From assembly GCF_008831285.2 (NCBI RefSeq), contig NC_045145.1, positions 11,780,802 to 11,844,801 of the forward strand: 64,000 nt of DNA, written 5' to 3'. Of this stretch, positions 38,007 to 47,103 are shown one piece after another. A model generated the notes under the pieces. It did no database searches. It worked only from the letters and a program-made list of their open reading frames with translations, and was not told where the DNA came from. Source of the stretch: Nymphaea colorata (Eukaryota > Streptophyta > Magnoliopsida > Nymphaeales > Nymphaeaceae). The translations under genes were made by a program, and so were the position numbers. The first letter of the stretch is position 1; every line of letters starts with the position of its first letter.

Positions 38007-41000
38007 TATGTGTGCTAGTCTCAAAAAAGCTTGTAATAAACATAGGGTGTGTTTGGAAGCCTCAAATCTTGATACGAGGATCTCAAATCAATGGCTTCTC
38101 AAAACTAGCATTGGAGAAGCCCTCATATTTAGACAAGGATCTAGCCTTCAGAGCTTTCTCACCAATAAGTCTCTCTCTCTTGCCCTCTTTCCACCTGAAA
38201 AGAGGAGTTTGAAGCCCACTTTACCCACCTTCAAGCCTTTTACGTTTTAATGGGTAAGAGTGTTTAAAGCCCCCATGTCTCTCTCTTGATGCAATCATGA
38301 GATGATCTTTCTGTCTCCTTTTCATCAGTCAACAGATTGAAGGCGGTTTTGCTCCTTCGTTTGCAAAGCCATGGATGCTCCCTTGTCATCTAGGAGGAGT
38401 CATCCTTAACGGTTCTGGTAGATCTCATTACATCATCTCCCTCACAAAAATGCACAAATGCTATGGACAATGGCAAGACACGGTAATTTGTTGGGCTTAG
38501 ATTGGGGCCTTCATTGTGTAACTATTCAAGCTGTTGCTTCCAATAAGTGGATTAAGCGATGAATGACTAGATGGAGGCCATGCATCAATATCAAACAAGA
38601 ACTGTTGTTCCACACCTTCCTGATAGAAATATTATTGGTTTTCAGTGGGTTTATAAGATTAAAGATAAACCAGATTGAAGTGTTGAGTTTTATGAAGCCT
38701 ATCTTGTGGCTAAAGGCTTCATGCAAGAGTTTGGACGTGAGGAACTATTCGTACTGTATTGGCCTTAATTATTTACCATGAATTGTAAAATAAGTTAATT
38801 AGATGTTAAGAATTTTCTTCACAGAGATCTCAGAGAAAAAGTATATATGAATGTCAAAATATATAGGTCCCTTTGTTTCTTTTTGTTGGTCAAAGGTTAT
38901 GTTTTATCTGTTTTGTTGTAATCTGACTTAGTGTTCCTGTTACAACCTTTACTAAAAAGGGGCAGATTGGTCTTTCACTGTTATAAGTATTTCTTAGACT
39001 ACGGTTTCGTCCACTTCTTTTTGTATTTTCTGGTTTCTCTTGTACAGTTCTGCTGTATGCTGCTGCTGCTTGCTACTCTTGCAGCTTAGAGGTATTGAAG
39101 AGTTTCACTCTTCCTGCTGATTTTATGTGTTGGGTTTGATATTTCATCATGGTCTCAGAGCCAGAGGGTTCGATCTGGCTTAGGACTGTTTGCTGCTTGT
39201 TTTGTGAGACAACTCTTTATATTCCTGTCGGGAAGTGCTTTGTATGCAGCTGTACTGAAGATTGGAGTAGAAGGAATTTTTTGGGTCTGTAAACTCCTAA
39301 TGTTTGTGTCATTCTTCTATTACTTAAAACTAGCTTAGCGACTTGCAGTGCAGCAGATTTGGGGTGACAGCTGTGCCAGTTTGGTTATCTGAGTGCACGT
39401 CATTTTCTGATATCTTGAAAAGAGTCTTCCATGCATGTTGGATTCACTGTTCACTATTGTTTTCTGGAAGAAAAATATATGCACCAATGTAATTTTGCAT
39501 GCGTATGAGGTTTGTGTTATTGACAATCTAAAACATCATTGATGAATCACATCTTGAAAGAGCAAGCTCCATGAACAGCAAGTTCCAGCCATTATGACAG
39601 CAAATACTAAATGAAGTAATATAAACTATCCAAGTCCTAGAATGAGGTAGATGAGGTTAATGCGATGGTGTTGACTGTGCTTGACATGGAAGATGTCATG
39701 GAAGTGACACGTGGATGCTTGAAATGAGATACATGTATTCTACTTATAAACCTCACAAGCATGATGAAGGCTATTTCTTGTGTTGCAGGAAAGCAGAGCC
39801 GGCAAATTCGACTTTGCTCGAAGATTCCACCATCAGTCAATAAAAGGAGCTATTTTGAAGGTCTGATGACACTGCTCTGCACAATTTATTATATACTTCA
39901 TCCATCTGCTGATGCGTCAGCCCCTTGAGTTGGTCTTACCTCTCGTGCATTATCTTCTCAGGTAGTGGGTCCTGCAGTAGCTTCTCTAATGTAAAGGGCA
40001 ATCTGATGAAAAAGGCAAAAATGGAATATTTGAACAGGTCGAACCGATTATTTGTTGCATTTTGGTTTTTCAGTTGTTCCATAAAAACCATTGTATTTGG
40101 TGGATCCAGCTTTAGTTCTTTCGATCACTGGCACCTTACCATTGTTGATTTTTGTTGGTTCAATAGCCATGAGGCAAAAGTACATGCTGCTATGAGGAAA
40201 AATGCATTGCAAAAGAAGTCTAATCTGCAATCAAGGTGTGCTCCAGACCTCAACTTTGGTCACCATTTTCATTTGTTTCTCTTCCAGATGTGTATAGCAT
40301 TTAGAGAAGTCACATGCATATATAGTGGTTCCTCATTTAGATTTAGCTATCTTTGTCTTGATTAAGCTACAACATGAATTTTTGGAAGAAAAACCCATCC
40401 AAAAATATCATGCTTGGTTTATGCAGAATGCTTTCAGCTAACTTGATCCATCTAGTTCAGACATAAAATTCTGTCAACTTCATGTTTGTCTTAAAGCAAT
40501 AAATTTCTTGCAGCTAGGTCTTGGTTTTGCTTGCGACTAGCTAAATATTTTCTTTACTCAGTATGGTTAAATGGGAGCTTGCAATAGGTAAATTTGGTCC
40601 TTGCATACATACTATATGATTTATTACTGGATTAATGTCAAGCTGGTCCATGCTGGCTTAGGTTGTGGGTTCAACATCTCTGAACTCATTTTTCGAGTCA
40701 GGTTAAAACTAACTGACTTTTTCAGTATGAGTCTGAGAATTATGTTTGGACTGCAATCTCATCGTTTGATGATTACCCAGAGTTGGTATATATGATTGGA
40801 TGACAAATTTAATTGCTAACGAGTAAAACCTGGGAAAATATTGTAAACCATACCACAATCACGAAGAAAATCTTTTTCACATTCAAATATATTGAGGACA
40901 ACAATTCAGAATGATAATTGAATATTATTCATGCAAAACAGTCGTATAAAACTAGCTTCAAAAGCCATAACCTTAACTTAGACTGATACAATATTTATAG

Positions 41001-41184
41001 AGAGAAAGAAACAAAAGATGGAGAAGCTAGCATTGGAATTCTCCAACAACTAGAAAGACGAAAGAAAACTAAAAAAAAGGTAAAAACAAAAAATAGAAAC
41101 ATTACAAAAATAAATGTAAACAAAGCATATTCAGTTGTATGCACATAATATATGCATAAGTATACATACAAGCACTTAAATACA

Positions 41185-41233
<49 letters not shown>

Positions 41234-44200
41234 TTAGATATAAACTAACACCTCCTGTTAAACTTATGGTGAGATCACTGAAAGTTTGCGAAGGAGAAAT
41301 TGGAATATATTTGATGCCAATGCATTGGTGAAAAATTTGGTATTTAATATTCTGAGTAAATGAAAAAAACTCAATATTCTTCTTGAACAAAGCGACAATC
41401 CATCTCGATGTGCTTGGTTCTTTCATGAGATGTGTGATTACTAACAATATAGACTGCGCTCTTGTTGTCACAACATAATCTAGTGGCTTCTTTAATCTAA
41501 ATCCCCATATCTTCTAACAAACTATTGAACCACACAATCTTCATAGTTATAGTAGCATAGCTCGATATTTTACTATTACGACATGTTCCATTCCCCTAGT
41601 AACATCCCCTTGATACTTCCAATGGGTAACATATATCTGTTGCGCTTGTGCTTAATTCTTTCTCACCACAAATCAATCCTATATAGGAAATAGAGACTTG
41701 TTAAAATACTAGCGGATCCATTGGATCGGTTGTCAATAGCTTTAAGTCATAATCTCCTTTTTTTTTTGGCTTTGCACCTCCAACTCCCCTATTATTATTT
41801 TAGGGATCAATAATGTAACAATTCCTTCATATTCATCGAGATAGGGGGCATGATTCACATGGATAAGTCTCACTTGGGCTGCTTTAATGGTAGTGTTTAC
41901 GTTTTCTCTTTCACCCGTAGTATGGGGAAGAAGTGGACTCTAAGGGTACCACTAATTGAGTGTAATTGAGTTGAGTAATCAGCTTGTATCAATTGTTTAA
42001 TTTCATAATTAGATCGTTTGATGTTTAGATAAACATATCTTCCAGTCTTCAATGGAGGGTAGCGTAACTTTATTCTATTTCTTGCATCATCAATAAATTA
42101 TTGATTCACCTAAAAATACACAAAACCAGTGGTGGAGTGTGTATTATTTGGGTCTCCAACCAAATCAGCATCTATATATACAATTATATTATGGGAGGAA
42201 GAGGAGGATAAAACGTCCCTTTATTTGTGGTGTTCTTGATGTATTTAGTGGTCCTTATAACTGCTCCCATATGTACAAATGTTGGTGTCTGTTGAGACCA
42301 TAGTCACAAATAACGTTTTGAAGTTTCAAACGGCGAGGTTTTTCTCGGGTATAATACAGCGAGCTTGAAAAAAACAGGAAAAAAGCGGGAAAAATACAGT
42401 AATTTTTTAAAATTTTTAAAAAACTAAAAATGAAAAAAAAAAGTGAGAAACTAATAACACAAACATCAAAAGATAAGTAGATTTGCAACAAATAAAAAAC
42501 AGAAAATTGAAAAAAATTGTTTGGCATTAAAAAAACTGAAAAAAGTAAAAAAAAAAGTGAAAAAAAGCGAAAAAACACATTAAAAACGTGTTTTTTAACT
42601 TTTTTCAAAAAAACCAGTTTTTTTAAGTTGTAAATGGTCATTTAATTTATTTCTTTTTTTCGTTTTTTTTCGAAAAAAACACGTTTTCTGTGACTATGGT
42701 TGAGACTGACTCGCAACATGAGCAACATGAACTATGTCTGATCTAATAATAGTCAAATAGGTGAAAACTCCAATCAATTGTCGATATCGGGTAGGATTCT
42801 TTAATGTTTCACCATCATATATGAATTCATCTTATGCCCAGAGGTTTGGGTGTCTCAACAACTTTATCATCTGTTAGTCTATGCATGTTTATCAAATCAT
42901 TTGCAAATTTGATTTTTGAAGGTGGATAACCTCTTTTTCTATGTGCAACTTCAATACCCAAATAATAAGAAACCCCAAGTCAGTCATTTTAAACTCATTT
43001 TCCAAACAACATTTGACTTGCTTAATGTCATATCATCACTTCCAGTAATAATCTTATACCAGCAAAAATATTTGTAACAAAAATAATTGTAGACAAACAT
43101 GATCTAAACCCTTGATCAAGTGTTACCTTATTGAATCTATCGTACCACGCCTTAGAAGCCTGTTTTAGGCCATACAAAGCTTTCTTAAGGTGTACGACCT
43201 TACCTTTAAATATTTCATAACAAGGCGGAGCATCCACGTAGACTTCCTCACTTAGATTGCCCTTAACAAATGCATTCTTGACTTCTATCTGAAAAGTGGC
43301 TTAATTTTTTATGGATGCAATTGTAATTAACGTCCTAATAGTGGTCATTCTGACAATAGGTGCAAATGTTTCCTCAGAGTCTATACTATACTCTTGAGCA
43401 TACCATTTGGTTACTAATCTATCTTTATATCTTTCAAATGATCCACACTTTGGGTTTTGACTTTATAGACCCATCTACAATTTTTAGTCTTTTTTTTAAT
43501 GTGTAAACCTGTTATTTCCCATATCCTCCATTTTTCAAATGCATCAAGTTCAACTTTCATGGCATCAATCCAATGAGGTTGACTTCTTGGAAACAAATCC
43601 TTGTGGTTGTCTTGTAGTTCTATTAAATGTCTCAAGAGTAGGTTGTATTTTCTACATTATTTGGCTCAATAGGTTGATTTCTTTTCCTACAAGTAAGCAT
43701 TCTTTAGCTGGCTCATTTTTAGATGGAAACATCTTCCTGTTCACGTGCAATTTCACTGTTAAATCATTTGTCATCATCATGACTACCTTCAGAACATTCA
43801 TCATCATCTATTAACTCAAAAAGAAAAGTATAATCATCACACTTGGAATAAAGGTCATAATGTCTATACCCTTTTTGAGTTTCGAATACCCAATAAAAAC
43901 ATATTTAATTGTTTCAGATGAGAGCTTAACACTTTTATTGTTCAAAATAAGACATTTACATCTAAAACTTTTAACCGATTATAATTTGGCTAATTAGGAA
44001 GCTTATGAAAAGGAGAGACATTATTCATTTTTCTTGAGAGCATTCTATTTATCAAATGTACACTAGTAAGAGCTACTTCAGCCCAAAACTTTTAGGAACA
44101 TTTTTTGAAATTAGAAGTGCTTGTGTAGTTTCAAGTATATGTCAATGTTTTCTTTCAACAGTCATATTTTGTTGAGGGGTTTTAGAGCATGATCTTTTGT

Positions 44201-47103
44201 GAACAATGCCTTTTTCCTTAAAAAAATGCATGAAATGAAATCATTTGAAGGGTACTCTCATACACATTCTCTCCTCAAGACTTTTATAGTAGCATCAGAT
44301 TGAATTTTGATCATATTGTAAAAATTCTCAAAGTGAAAGAGAACTTCAGATCTGTGTTTGAGAAAGTAAATCCAAGTGTATTTAAAGAAATCATATATGA
44401 ATATCACATAATATGACAACCCGTCCTTGATATAATGGGACGGGTCCCCATGCATCCGAATGCACTAAGTCAAAAGGAATTTTGAAACAAAGGTTCTTTT
44501 ATTGAAGTGTAAGGAGCTCATTTTTGCTTTGAAACAATCATCACTTGTGACATTTTTGATACATATTTCTTTCCAATAGGTATATATGATATTTTTCTAA
44601 AGTTTAAATGCCCCAATCTTTGATGCCAAAGATTTACATTGGTTTCCTTAACTAGATTACAAAAAGGTTTGTATGAGTCTAAATAATCCACGTAACATAG
44701 ATCTCCTTCTTGAAAACTCGGTTCTATATGAAACATTTAGTTTGTGAGAAAGTTATATCACAACCATGATCAGTTATTTGAGAAATAGACAAGAGATTAA
44801 GATTTAATTTAGGAATACATCTTAATTTTGTTATAAATTTTGAGTCAATTTTTTTGGTCAATATTTCCAACAAAGTCAGTAGGAAGAAGTCTTTCACTGG
44901 CAGTTTTTACGAAAAAAAAAAAAGATCATTGGTGCATTCAGTAAGAAGGGGACCATGAGGTTGCATCCAAGAGCTTAGGTTGAAGAGCCACTAACCAATT
45001 TGTCAAGGTCCAATGACGATTCATTATTGTTTTTTTCATTCATGGCTCCAACAATTCCTGTTGTCCTTTTAAATTTCTTCAATTTTGGACACTTAGGGTT
45101 TGTGTGTCCTTTTTCTTGGCAATGGAAGCAAATGACTTTCTTAGTTTCATTATTCATTTGTTTTGTAGAAGTCTGGTGGTTTATATGGTCTGATATGAGG
45201 TCTGGGATATGAAGTTGCAAAAGCACTATCATTCTTTTCTTTAGAAAAGTTCAGACTGTTTTCTTCCATTTGCAATTCAGCAATGAAGTCATTCATAGAA
45301 GGAACTTTAGGTCGATAAAGTAGGAAATTCTTTACACCATCAATTCTTAGGACCACATCATGTGGATCCATCAAATTTGGTTCAAACATAACCATCTCAT
45401 CCTACAATTGATCTATCTCAACAACATACTCCTTAATAGTTTTATTTCATTGTTGAAGATTAGTAATTTTAACTTTGATATTGCACATATCGGCCATGTT
45501 CTTCATTGTCGGAGTCTTCTCAAAAAATTCCATGCTTCATGAGCATGGTTGAGTTTTGAAATTTGCCCTCCAATAGCATTATTCATATAAGTGAGGATAA
45601 ATAATAATTTTGTGATGGCCAATCTTTCATTCATCCTATTTCTTTCCATAATCAGCCATAACTTCTCCTTTTCACTACCTTCTAATTCTTGGGCGTATCG
45701 TTCGTCATTCGTCAACCACTTTATTCAATATTAATTGATGTTCTGTTTTAGTCCTATCAACTAATCTCCAAAAAACTTTACTTCTAGTAAAATGGTCCAT
45801 GATTCTAGCCCATTGAGCATAATTAGTGGAAGTAAGTTTTCGAAAGGGAATTATGGAGACTTTTTCTTCTGTAATGCCCACAAAAAAATTGAAGGATACC
45901 AAAAATTGATGAACTTACAGGTTTTGGAGTAAATCCAGTTGCAAAGATTAATCAGGATAGATGCACTCCAATTGCCATTATGAATCTTGTCACTCGTCCT
46001 CCTATTCTAATCGTTGAAACTTGGTGGGTAGAACCATAAGCTGTTCGATTTCCTCAATAACTATTGATTAAATTGTTGTTCACCATAACAACAGTCACTA
46101 GGAACTAAGAAGCTTCTAGCAAAAGTTTAAAAAAAAAAAGCGTAACTTTAAATAGTGAACTCATCAAACAGTTGGTGAGCAAAAACTGCAAGTCGGCTTC
46201 AACGACACATCCATAAGATGTCCAAGAGAGAATCAGATCGAACAAAGTCCTATGGAAATTGAATATTGTTCATAAAAGATAGTCATAAGTGACAAAAGCC
46301 ATAACCTTAAACTAATACAATATCTATAGAGAGAGAGACCAAAGGGGAGAAGCTAGCTGTTGGGTTGAGCGTTTGAACTTTGAACTATCCAACAGCTAGA
46401 AACATAAAAAAAAAAAAATAGAAACATTACGAAAATAAATATAAACAAAATGTACTGCAATCCTATGTATGAAATATATGTATAAGTATATATGTATACA
46501 TACAAACCACCGTCACAAATATCACACAAATATCACGTCTTAATAAAAAAAACATTAAATATGCAAAAAATAAGTCAGCTGTATAAACGGCAATAAAATG
46601 TGTTTTTTTTAATTCCAGAATATAAAAAATGTGAAAAAATACATATTTTTTCATATTTTTGATTAATTTTTTATTTATTTTATTTTTTATAATTTTCAAA
46701 AGTTTTTAAATTTTTAAAAAAATTGCCAAGATTTTTTCAAGATATGTTCAAGAAACACAACTTTGCTGTATTATTTTTGAGAAATTCATCGCCGTATAAT
46801 ACCTATACACGATATATGTGATACACGATATGTGTGACAATGATACAAACACTTAATACAATGATATATGCTGATATATATATATATATATATATACAAA
46901 ATACAACAAATAGCTTTTTTTTTATTAAAAGTAAAAATTTCATCTTAAGGATATGGAATCTACGTGCTTAGTTGATAACTTCTTGTTTTTTTTAATGTAG
47001 TGCTTCTCAAATGGCAAGACCAAGCAGTTTCACTTTGAAAGGGTCATCATCATCCTCCAATTTGAGGACTGCTGTTCCATCAGTGAAGAAACACCCATGG
47101 TAA
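35723..47103 (+). CDS. ELOA: Elongin A (RNA polymerase II transcription elongation factor subunit), 7 exons
   Basis: Coding exons are 35723-35884, 36127-36264, 36674-36752, 39789-39860, 39962-40037, 40167-40235 and 47001-47103. They total 699 bases, or 232 residues plus TAA. All introns are GT-AG and every phase joins in frame. The N terminus has the BC-box SLVDLCVQTA (residues 7-16), which in elongin A binds elongin C, then an F-box-like helix region (LLKFILPHCTADQLMHIE). GRDLTAVTDNLWKKHYEQLFG and the MKK...YKWRDLYK segment follow, then AKLKERDEAQKKSVDRLK, RKQSRQIRLCSKIPPS, LMKKAKMEYLNSHEAKVH, and a basic Ser-rich tail ending KKHPW. Elongin A is a nuclear protein that promotes elongation by RNA polymerase II and can act as a substrate adaptor in a cullin ubiquitin ligase. 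Length is somewhat shorter than many plant homologues. Introns 3 and 6 contain retrotransposon DNA. No internal stop was seen, so it may be functional. Confidence 0.9.
36127..36264 (+). CDS. ELOA: Elongin A exon 2
   Basis: Residues 55-100, acceptor TTTGCTAG|GGA, donor AAG|GTAGTT, phase 0 both sides. Encodes GRDLTAVTDNLW, HYEQLFG and KWRDLYK, highly conserved in plant elongin A. Confidence 0.92.
36674..36752 (+). CDS. ELOA: Elongin A exon 3
   Basis: Acceptor TTGCAG|GCA, donor CTTA|GTAAGC, ends in phase 1. Encodes AKLKERDEAQKKSVDRLK then NLYAQEVL, a Lys/Glu-rich helix. Confidence 0.9.
38557..38745 (+). pseudogene. Ty1/copia reverse transcriptase scrap
   Basis: In one frame RTVVPHLPDRNIIGFQWVYK and IKDKPD*SVEFYEAYLVAKG match the copia reverse transcriptase N-terminal core (normally ...GCKWVYKIK...G...YKARLVAKG), with one stop. 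It is shorter than 200 bases and lies in intron 3 in the same orientation as the gene. Confidence 0.7.
38870..39171 (+). repeat. Degenerate LTR and primer-binding-site remnant
   Basis: A promoter-like stretch with GTTATAAGTA and a TCT-rich leader ends at TTTCATCATGGTCTCAGAGCC (39144-39164). This is close to the copia sequence ATGGTATCAGAGCC found at LTR/primer-binding-site junctions. LTR borders could not be fixed. It is downstream of the reverse transcriptase scrap, so the original element is rearranged or two scraps are adjacent. Confidence 0.5.
39789..39860 (+). CDS. ELOA: Elongin A exon 4
   Basis: Acceptor TGTTGCAG|GA, phase 1 in and phase 1 out; donor GAAG|GTCTGA is weak. Encodes RKQSRQIRLCSKIPPSVNKR then SYFE. 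Confidence 0.88.
39962..40037 (+). CDS. ELOA: Elongin A exon 5
   Basis: Acceptor CTTCTCAG|GT, donor AACAG|GTCGAA, ends in phase 2. Encodes GSGSCSSFSNVKGNLMKKAK then MEYLN, the conserved SNVK.LMKKAK block. Confidence 0.88.
40167..40235 (+). CDS. ELOA: Elongin A exon 6
   Basis: Acceptor TTCAATAG|C, donor TCAAG|GTGTGC. The joined codon gives Ser, then HEAKVHAAMRKNALQKKSN and LQS(R/S). If intron 6 were not removed, a stop would follow soon after (acceptor at 40289 gives RCV then stop), which would be a truncated alternative C terminus. Confidence 0.85.
40912..41250 (-). repeat. 3' LTR of the intron-6 copia element
   Basis: On the minus strand begins TGTTAGTTTATATC, preceded by a purine tract (AACAGGAGG), and ends ATTATCA-type sequence at 40912. 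It includes an (AT)n run at 41189-41231. It lacks the MITE found in the other LTR and so shows that MITE's empty site at 41166-41173 (ATACAAGC). Confidence 0.8.
41251..45902 (-). pseudogene. Ty1/copia gag-pol of the intron-6 element, degenerate
   Basis: Minus-strand order: gag from 45902 (FRKLTSTNYAQWARIMDHF); AHEAWNFLRRL (near 45520-45550); zinc knuckle CFHCQEKGHTNPKC with all four ligands (45089-45131); pre-integrase WHQRLGHLNFRKI (near 44600-44640); integrase MHGDPSHYIKDGLSYYVIFI (44396-44455); reverse transcriptase HWIDAMKVELDAFEKW (43530-43577) and VHLKKALYGLKQASKAWYDR (43135-43194); RNase H with HERTKHIEMD-type residues (41395-41440). Frame breaks are throughout, and a 400-bp MITE interrupts the reverse transcriptase to RNase H interval. 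Confidence 0.85.
42299..42698. mobile_element. hAT-like MITE, copy 1
   Basis: 400 bp flanked by the perfect 8-bp target duplication GTTGAGAC (42291-42298 and 42699-42706). Termini are CATAGTCACA and TGTGACTATG, with further pairing of AACGTTTT and AAAACGTG. The interior is A/T-rich with the internal words GGCGAGGTTTTTCTCG and TATAATACAGCGAGCTTG. It has no coding capacity. An 8-bp duplication with CA-starting inverted repeats points to the hAT superfamily. Confidence 0.8.
46253..46908 (-). repeat. 5' LTR of the intron-6 copia element (with MITE)
   Basis: Homologous to 40912-41250 once the 335-bp MITE and one 8-bp duplication are removed (about 313 bp remains). It contains a hairpin CTAGCTGTTGG...CCAACAGCTAG at 46353-46399 in the position of the similar hairpin in the other copia family's LTR. 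Confidence 0.75.
46508..46842. mobile_element. hAT-like MITE, copy 2
   Basis: 335 bp flanked by the perfect 8-bp duplication ATACAAAC (46500-46507 and 46843-46850). Termini are CACCGTCACAAATATC and GATATGTGTGACAATG. Compared with copy 1 it is in the opposite orientation: its right side carries GGCGATGAATTTCTC and AATAATACAGCAAAGTTG when reverse-complemented, matching the left side of copy 1. It is inserted in the 5' LTR of the copia element; the 3' LTR shows the unoccupied site. Confidence 0.85.
47001..47103 (+). CDS. ELOA: Elongin A exon 7 (terminal)
   Basis: The T at 47001 completes the split Ser codon. Then ASQMARPSSFTLKGSSSSSN followed by LRTAVPSVKKHPW and TAA at 47101-47103. The frame agrees with exon 6 across the 6.8-kb intron, which is the main evidence that the gene continues here. 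The SSNLRTA...KK tail resembles the basic C-terminal end of plant elongin A. Confidence 0.82.

What the first reader, a model, noticed from the sequence alone, without database searches (positions are those of the whole stretch)
42291..46850. A MITE family with CAnnGTCACA ends and 8-bp target duplications, two copies in one retrotransposon
Copy 1 (400 bp, duplication GTTGAGAC) and copy 2 (335 bp, duplication ATACAAAC) share termini CA(TA/CC)GTCACA and TGTGAC(T/A)ATG and internal words (GGCGA..TTTCTC, AATACAGC). They are inserted in opposite orientations. The empty site for copy 2 is present in the other LTR of the same copia element (ATACAAGC at 41166), which is strong internal proof of insertion. 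I do not recognise this family by name.
Basis: seen in the sequence. Interest (0 to 1): 0.7.

Follow-up and report, generated by a model that had tools for sequence, protein, structure and literature searches.

The report
Abundant plant mini-transposon family, two copies
Two short non-coding jumping-DNA pieces sit inside an older broken retrotransposon; the first belongs to a large, old family of mini-transposons spread through this plant genome, which is an ordinary kind of element even though this particular family was not found described.

Summary
Copy 1 (42299-42698) and copy 2 (46508-46842) have exact 8-bp duplications and CANNGTCACA ends, and are the only such pairs in the window. The empty site of copy 2 lies in the other LTR of the Copia host. 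The requested genome-wide check: copy 1's 19-bp left end occurs 1167 times in the window's own genome (up to 2 mismatches), against 5 for the reversed pattern. Of 48 sampled copies, 27 have a recognisable right end; 11 of those 27 have a duplication within 2 mismatches, about 1.2 expected. Target sites favour T at position 2 and A at position 7, as recalled for hAT. 22 copies compared average 79% alike, and their consensus is non-coding, so the family is old. Copy 2 is a diverged subfamily; one further member with an exact duplication was found. Rare members of 1.0-1.2 kb carry another, partly G+C-rich interior. No autonomous element was found, though only part of the hAT candidates was scored, and the left end CATAG breaks the published hAT consensus at base 3. 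Verdict: a real, ordinary MITE family; it behaves like a hAT MITE, superfamily unproven.

The parts
42291..42298 (.). left target-site duplication of copy 1, GTTGAGAC
42299..42698 (+). copy 1, MITE of the main (A) subfamily, 400 bp, ends CATAGTCACA / TGTGACTATG; inserted in the pol region of the Copia host; about 90% identical to the consensus of 22 copies
42699..42706 (.). right target-site duplication of copy 1, GTTGAGAC
46500..46507 (.). left target-site duplication of copy 2, ATACAAAC
46508..46842 (-). copy 2, MITE of a diverged (B) subfamily, 335 bp, in opposite orientation to copy 1, inserted in an LTR; a near-repeat of 16-17 bp (TCACACATATCGTGTA / TCACATATATCGTGTA) at its CATTG end
46843..46850 (.). 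right target-site duplication of copy 2, ATACAAAC
41166..41173 (.). empty site of copy 2 in the other LTR, ATACAAGC
40911..46918 (-). decayed Copia LTR retrotransposon that hosts both copies; outer borders not determined exactly
   Evidence: RVT_2 and gag_pre-integrase pieces; LTR pair 82% identical over 322 aligned bases; minus-strand reading of the two pieces

Best explanation
Both pieces are non-autonomous miniature inverted-repeat transposons (MITEs). A transposase encoded elsewhere recognised their ends (CANNGTCACA plus subterminal sequence), cut them out and pasted them into 8-bp staggered cuts, giving the 8-bp duplications. The Copia element inserted first; later one MITE of each of two related subfamilies landed in it, in opposite orientations. 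Shown: termini, duplications, empty site, high copy number, target preference, lack of coding. Inferred: that a cut-and-paste transposase of the hAT kind moved them, and that the 1.0-1.2 kb members with a partly G+C-rich interior are deletion derivatives of the autonomous element.
For: Exact duplications and empty site. 1167 left ends against 5 control. In 48 sampled copies (50 collected, 2 with duplicate flanks dropped) the 8 bases left of the element show T at position 2 in 40, A at position 7 in 34, G at position 1 in 30; this is the hAT-type pattern nTnnnnAn (pattern recalled, in no call). Of 27 with a right end, 3 have a perfect duplication (copy 1, used as query source, is one of them), 6 have 1 mismatch, 2 have 2 mismatches; the null of swapped partners gives 4.5% at 2 or fewer. 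Non-coding consensus, longest stop-to-stop stretch 68 aa. Member L046 is 1033 bp with a duplication of 7 of 8. The hexamer AAACGG, the binding site of maize Ac transposase (PMC3260210, passages), is the commonest of its 60 letter permutations in the 22 copies, 15 occurrences against a shuffle mean of 6.9 and maximum of 13 in 100.
Against: No transposase with these ends was found: 30 top PF05699 loci (1.5 kb each side) carry none; no listed family place lay within 10 kb of a scored PF05699 or PF14372 match when compared by eye, except one on C6 that proved unrelated. The terminal CATAG fails (T/C)A(A/G)NG at base 3. 16 of 27 copies with a right end lack a duplication within 2 mismatches at the exact place; 4 of these (L033, L036, L039, L049) show one displaced by 2 to 14 bp. 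The AAACGG excess is one or two shared sites by descent, not independent events; the two long members L046 and L026 have no AAACGG (L026 one CCGTTT).
Confidence: 0.85

Rival explanations
1. The MITEs were moved by a non-hAT transposase with 8-bp duplications, such as a P-superfamily enzyme.
For: CATAG fits the P-type end CANRG and the palindromic GTTnnAAC tendency of the target sites recalls P targets (both patterns recalled, in no call); hAT end consensus is broken at base 3.
Against: PF21787 gave 0 matches from 2 candidates and PF12017 0 from 0 in the own genome, but the control genomes were silent too, so this is weak. Other end variants (CAGTG, CATTG, CACCG) do not fit CANRG. The genome holds many hAT domains (150 scored of 1113 candidates).
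Confidence: 0.07
2. The two copies are unrelated families that share a short terminal motif by convergence.
For: Overall identity of copies 1 and 2 is low; copy 2 scores 290 with the L104 element but at most 161 with any other fetched locus.
Against: Alignment of copies 1 and 2 in opposite orientation (162) exceeds all 200 shuffles (maximum 133.5), and the block near the left end (TACGGCGA..TTTCTC..ATAATACAGC) matches in order. Shuffles keep only dinucleotides, so the test is moderate for such A/T-run sequences.
Confidence: 0.12
3. The repeats are not transposons but spread by segmental or tandem duplication.
For: Some places are duplicated with their flanks (L048, L063 dropped as duplicates; L065 shares flank with L062; L033 shows a 66-bp tandem duplication, 61 of 66 identical).
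Against: 48 copies after dropping duplicates have different flanks with a target-site preference, and duplications exceed the null; both window copies have exact duplications and copy 2 has an empty site.
Confidence: 0.01

Closest known systems
hAT-type MITEs; maize Ds1 / Ds-like elements as the described model (PMC3260210, passages seen)
   Same: about 300-400 bp, non-coding, 8-bp duplications, 10-11 bp terminal repeats, many more non-autonomous than autonomous copies, AAACGG in subterminal regions
   Different: different terminal repeat (CATAGTCACA, not C/TAGGGATGAAA); no autonomous partner identified; copy number higher by left-end count (1167 matches; Ds-related 903 in the paper)
BuT2 MITEs of Drosophila (PMC3942097, passages seen)
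   Same: short hAT deletion derivatives with 12-bp ends and 8-bp duplications
   Different: there the autonomous element is known; here it is not
Common hAT families of this same genome (L073-L093 and others)
   Same: same genome, intact or nearly intact hAT reading frames
   Different: where near-identical copies allow the right border to be read, it ends ..GCCCAGCCCTA or similar, not GTGACTATG; none of 30 loci carries the family ends
P superfamily
   Same: 8-bp duplications; CATAG fits CANRG (recalled)
   Different: no P-element domain found, with silent controls; other end variants do not fit

Membership tests
MITE (non-autonomous miniature transposon) | short, with terminal inverted repeats | tested here: met
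   335 and 400 bp; 10-bp ends, exact for copy 1, 8 of 10 for copy 2 (CACCGTCACA / CATTGTCACA)
MITE (non-autonomous miniature transposon) | target-site duplication | tested here: met
   8 of 8 for both copies; 11 of 27 sampled copies within 2 mismatches against 1.2 expected
MITE (non-autonomous miniature transposon) | many copies | tested here: met
   1167 left-end matches against 5 control; this count is for subfamily A. The count for subfamily B did not complete
MITE (non-autonomous miniature transposon) | no coding capacity | tested here: met
   longest stop-to-stop stretch 68 aa in the consensus of 22 copies
hAT superfamily | 8-bp duplication | tested here: met
hAT superfamily | target preference nTnnnnAn (recalled; a search for the string in PMC3942097 found none) | tested here: met
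   T at position 2 in 40 of 48, A at position 7 in 34 of 48
hAT superfamily | terminal consensus (T/C)A(A/G)NG (PMC6027215, passages) | tested here: not met
   left end CATAG fails base 3; right-end variant CAGTG (for example L029, L066) fits; CATTG and CACCG of copy 2 fail
hAT superfamily | transposase with hAT domains between the same ends | tested here: inconclusive
   none found, but only 150 of 1113 PF05699 and 150 of 374 PF14372 candidates were scored, and family places were listed only in part
P superfamily | P-element transposase domains | tested here: inconclusive
   0 matches for PF21787 and PF12017; controls silent
P superfamily | terminal motif CANRG (recalled) | tested here: inconclusive
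   CATAG fits, CAGTG, CATTG and CACCG do not

The most novel reading that the evidence does not exclude
The family is driven by a transposase outside the hAT superfamily (P-like or undescribed) in a flowering plant, whose ends CANNGTCACA with GTTnnAAC-like 8-bp targets mark a plant lineage of 8-bp-duplication transposons not recognised so far; the 1.0-1.2 kb members keep part of its gene.
Probability: 0.06. Interest if true: 0.6.

Novelty: new member of a known kind. Interest (0 to 1): 0.2.

Why it matters
It adds a large, apparently unnamed MITE family with two subfamilies and long derivatives to the repeat annotation of this plant, and it gives a clean nested-insertion case (two MITEs in one retrotransposon, one with its empty site kept in the sister LTR). 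Which enzyme moved more than a thousand copies whose ends do not fit the hAT consensus exactly is a testable question, but MITE families of this kind are common in plants.

Tried and rejected
Whole-copy DNA searches of copy 1 and copy 2 against the own genome did not complete, so the copy count rests on the 19-bp end pattern. The count for subfamily B (pattern CATTGTCACATATATCRTGTA) did not complete either.

First pattern tried (CANNGTCACA repeated within 10-30 bases): 84 matches against 46 control, little better than chance; only a few were family members (L010, L013, L016).

Autonomous partner: the best lead was a copy on contig C6 about 3 kb upstream of a 665-aa hAT-like reading frame; rejected because the copy is a truncated fragment and no right end with a duplication follows the frame. 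The interior of the 1158-bp member L026 was used as query (23 matches), and that of L046 (8 matches). Two small fetches then showed more long members, one with a tandemly repeated interior (L106), but no transposase frame. Comparison of listed places with hAT domain matches was by eye with a 10-kb limit, not by script.

AAACGG subterminal motif: kept only as a weak lead, because the excess comes from one or two sites inherited by all copies.

Species: from the assembly size (407.8 Mb, 783 contigs) I guessed Nymphaea colorata; this is recalled and was not tested, and nothing in the argument needs it.

Literature: seven searches. The string catagtcaca is in 62 papers, of which I saw the 15 listed, by title and abstract start; these 15 are animal, human or cell studies, and the other 47 were not seen. 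The survey of MITEs in 207 plant genomes (PMC12550479, passages) has no 'Nymphaea' in its main text; its supplements were not open to me. So 'not described' is limited to these searches.

Full report
What is there. The window is part of contig C8 (11780802-11844801) of a 407.8-Mb assembly. At 42299-42698 and 46508-46842 lie two short non-coding elements with ends of the form CANNGTCACA and exact 8-bp duplications of different sequence. No other pair in the 64 kb passes the same test. They lie in a decayed Copia retrotransposon on the minus strand, recognised by RVT_2 (E 9.7e-16) and gag_pre-integrase (E 2.7e-7) in 2 of 5 pieces scanned. Copy 1 is in the pol region; copy 2 is in an LTR whose sister LTR keeps the empty site ATACAAGC at 41166-41173. 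The LTRs match at 264 of 322 aligned bases, so the host is old.

The family. The 19-bp left end of copy 1 has 1167 matches with up to 2 mismatches in the own genome against 5 for the reversed pattern. By my count 85 listed places are exact, copy 1 included; I read 50 others of these. One (L032) was left out as it lies 66 bp from L033, leaving 50 copies with copy 1; 2 with duplicate flanks were dropped, leaving 48. 27 of 48 have a recognisable right end within 490 bp; the other 21 are cut short or interrupted (the causes were not worked out one by one; L041 looks interrupted by another repeat). Of the 27, 3 have a perfect duplication (copy 1, L027, L044), 6 have one mismatch and 2 have two, at the exact place. 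Pairing the left flank of one copy with the right flank of another gives 4.5% at two mismatches or fewer, or 1.2 of 27. Sixteen of 27 do not pass; four of those have the duplication displaced by 2-14 bp (L033, L036, L039, L049; none to one mismatch), where the null for any place within 20 bp is 2.1%. L065 shares a flank with L062 and was not caught by the duplicate filter, so the 48 are not fully independent.

Target and age. The 8 bases left of the element have G30 T40 T33 at positions 1-3 and A34 at position 7, out of 48. This agrees with the recalled hAT pattern nTnnnnAn. Twenty-two of the 27 copies (L028, L031, L045, L061 and L065 left out as doubtful ends or duplicates) were aligned: pairwise identity mean 0.789, range 0.722-0.869; identity to the consensus 0.82-0.93; longest stop-to-stop stretch of the consensus 68 aa. 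The left half is A-rich and the right half T-rich; copy 1 as RNA folds at -77.3 kcal/mol against a shuffle mean of -59.7 (0 of 100 shuffles as low).

Two subfamilies. Copy 2 matches an element at L104 589-930 (326 bp between duplications) at 242 of 324 alignment columns; that element has GCTGCAAC on both sides, and its left end lacks the first two terminal bases. Copy 2 scores at most 161 with any other fetched locus, against 290 here. Copies 1 and 2 share ends and a left block in order, so I treat them as subfamilies A and B of one family. The copy number of B is unknown, because its search did not complete.

Long members. L046 is 1033 bp with GCTTGTTG / GTTTGTTG around it (7 of 8); L026 is 1158 bp and has family ends but no matching duplication. 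They share a different interior with a G+C-rich part. That part of L026 has 23 matches in the genome; an interior part of L046 has 8. L103 holds another long-type left end, L104 and L105 long-type right ends, and L106 a tandemly repeated interior. Read on the other strand, the G+C-rich part looks by eye like a 5' untranslated exon ending in CAG|GTAGG; that these are remains of the autonomous element's gene is inference.

What moved them. Duplication length, target preference and general anatomy are those of hAT elements. The genome has many hAT domains: 150 scored of 1113 PF05699 candidates and 150 of 374 PF14372 candidates. None of the 30 best PF05699 loci carries the family ends within 1.5 kb, and where their right borders can be read they are of another type. 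No partner was found. The left end fails the published consensus (T/C)A(A/G)NG (PMC6027215, passages) at base 3, although right ends of the form CAGTG fit it. By the rule for membership I therefore do not file it as a proven hAT family; it works like a hAT MITE. P-element domains PF21787 and PF12017 gave nothing, but the controls were silent. AAACGG, the hexamer bound by Ac transposase (PMC3260210, passages), occurs 15 times in 22 copies against a shuffle mean of 6.9 and maximum of 13, but mostly at one inherited site.

Verdict. It is an ordinary, old, numerous MITE family with a question left open about its enzyme. Interest 0.2.

Noticed in passing
L010 2001-2049 (contig C9 near 19214272): The left end of a family member is tandemly duplicated, 25 bp apart, including flank bases.
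   Followed up: partly
L033 (contig C2 near 21763869-21763953): A 66-bp tandem duplication spans the insertion junction (33 bp of flank and 33 bp of left end), 61 of 66 identical.
   Followed up: yes
L033, L036, L039, L049: The right duplication is displaced 2 to 14 bp from the terminal TG, as if filler bases lay between the end and the duplication.
   Followed up: partly
contig C7 5265893-5627401 (L062, L063, L065): Members with the same left flank recur within about 0.3 Mb, suggesting local segmental duplication; six exact left ends lie in 5.26-5.76 Mb.
   Followed up: no
contig C1 4529428-4529853: Three left-end matches of the CATTG type within 426 bp, two facing each other about 280 bp apart; may be a subfamily with long inverted ends. 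Not fetched.
   Followed up: no
L106 (contig C1 33492600-33497700): Interior of a long member amplified as a tandem array of roughly 450-bp units (by eye).
   Followed up: no
L102 3562-5559 (contig C6 near 2010261): An intact 665-aa hAT-like reading frame, not linked to this family.
   Followed up: partly
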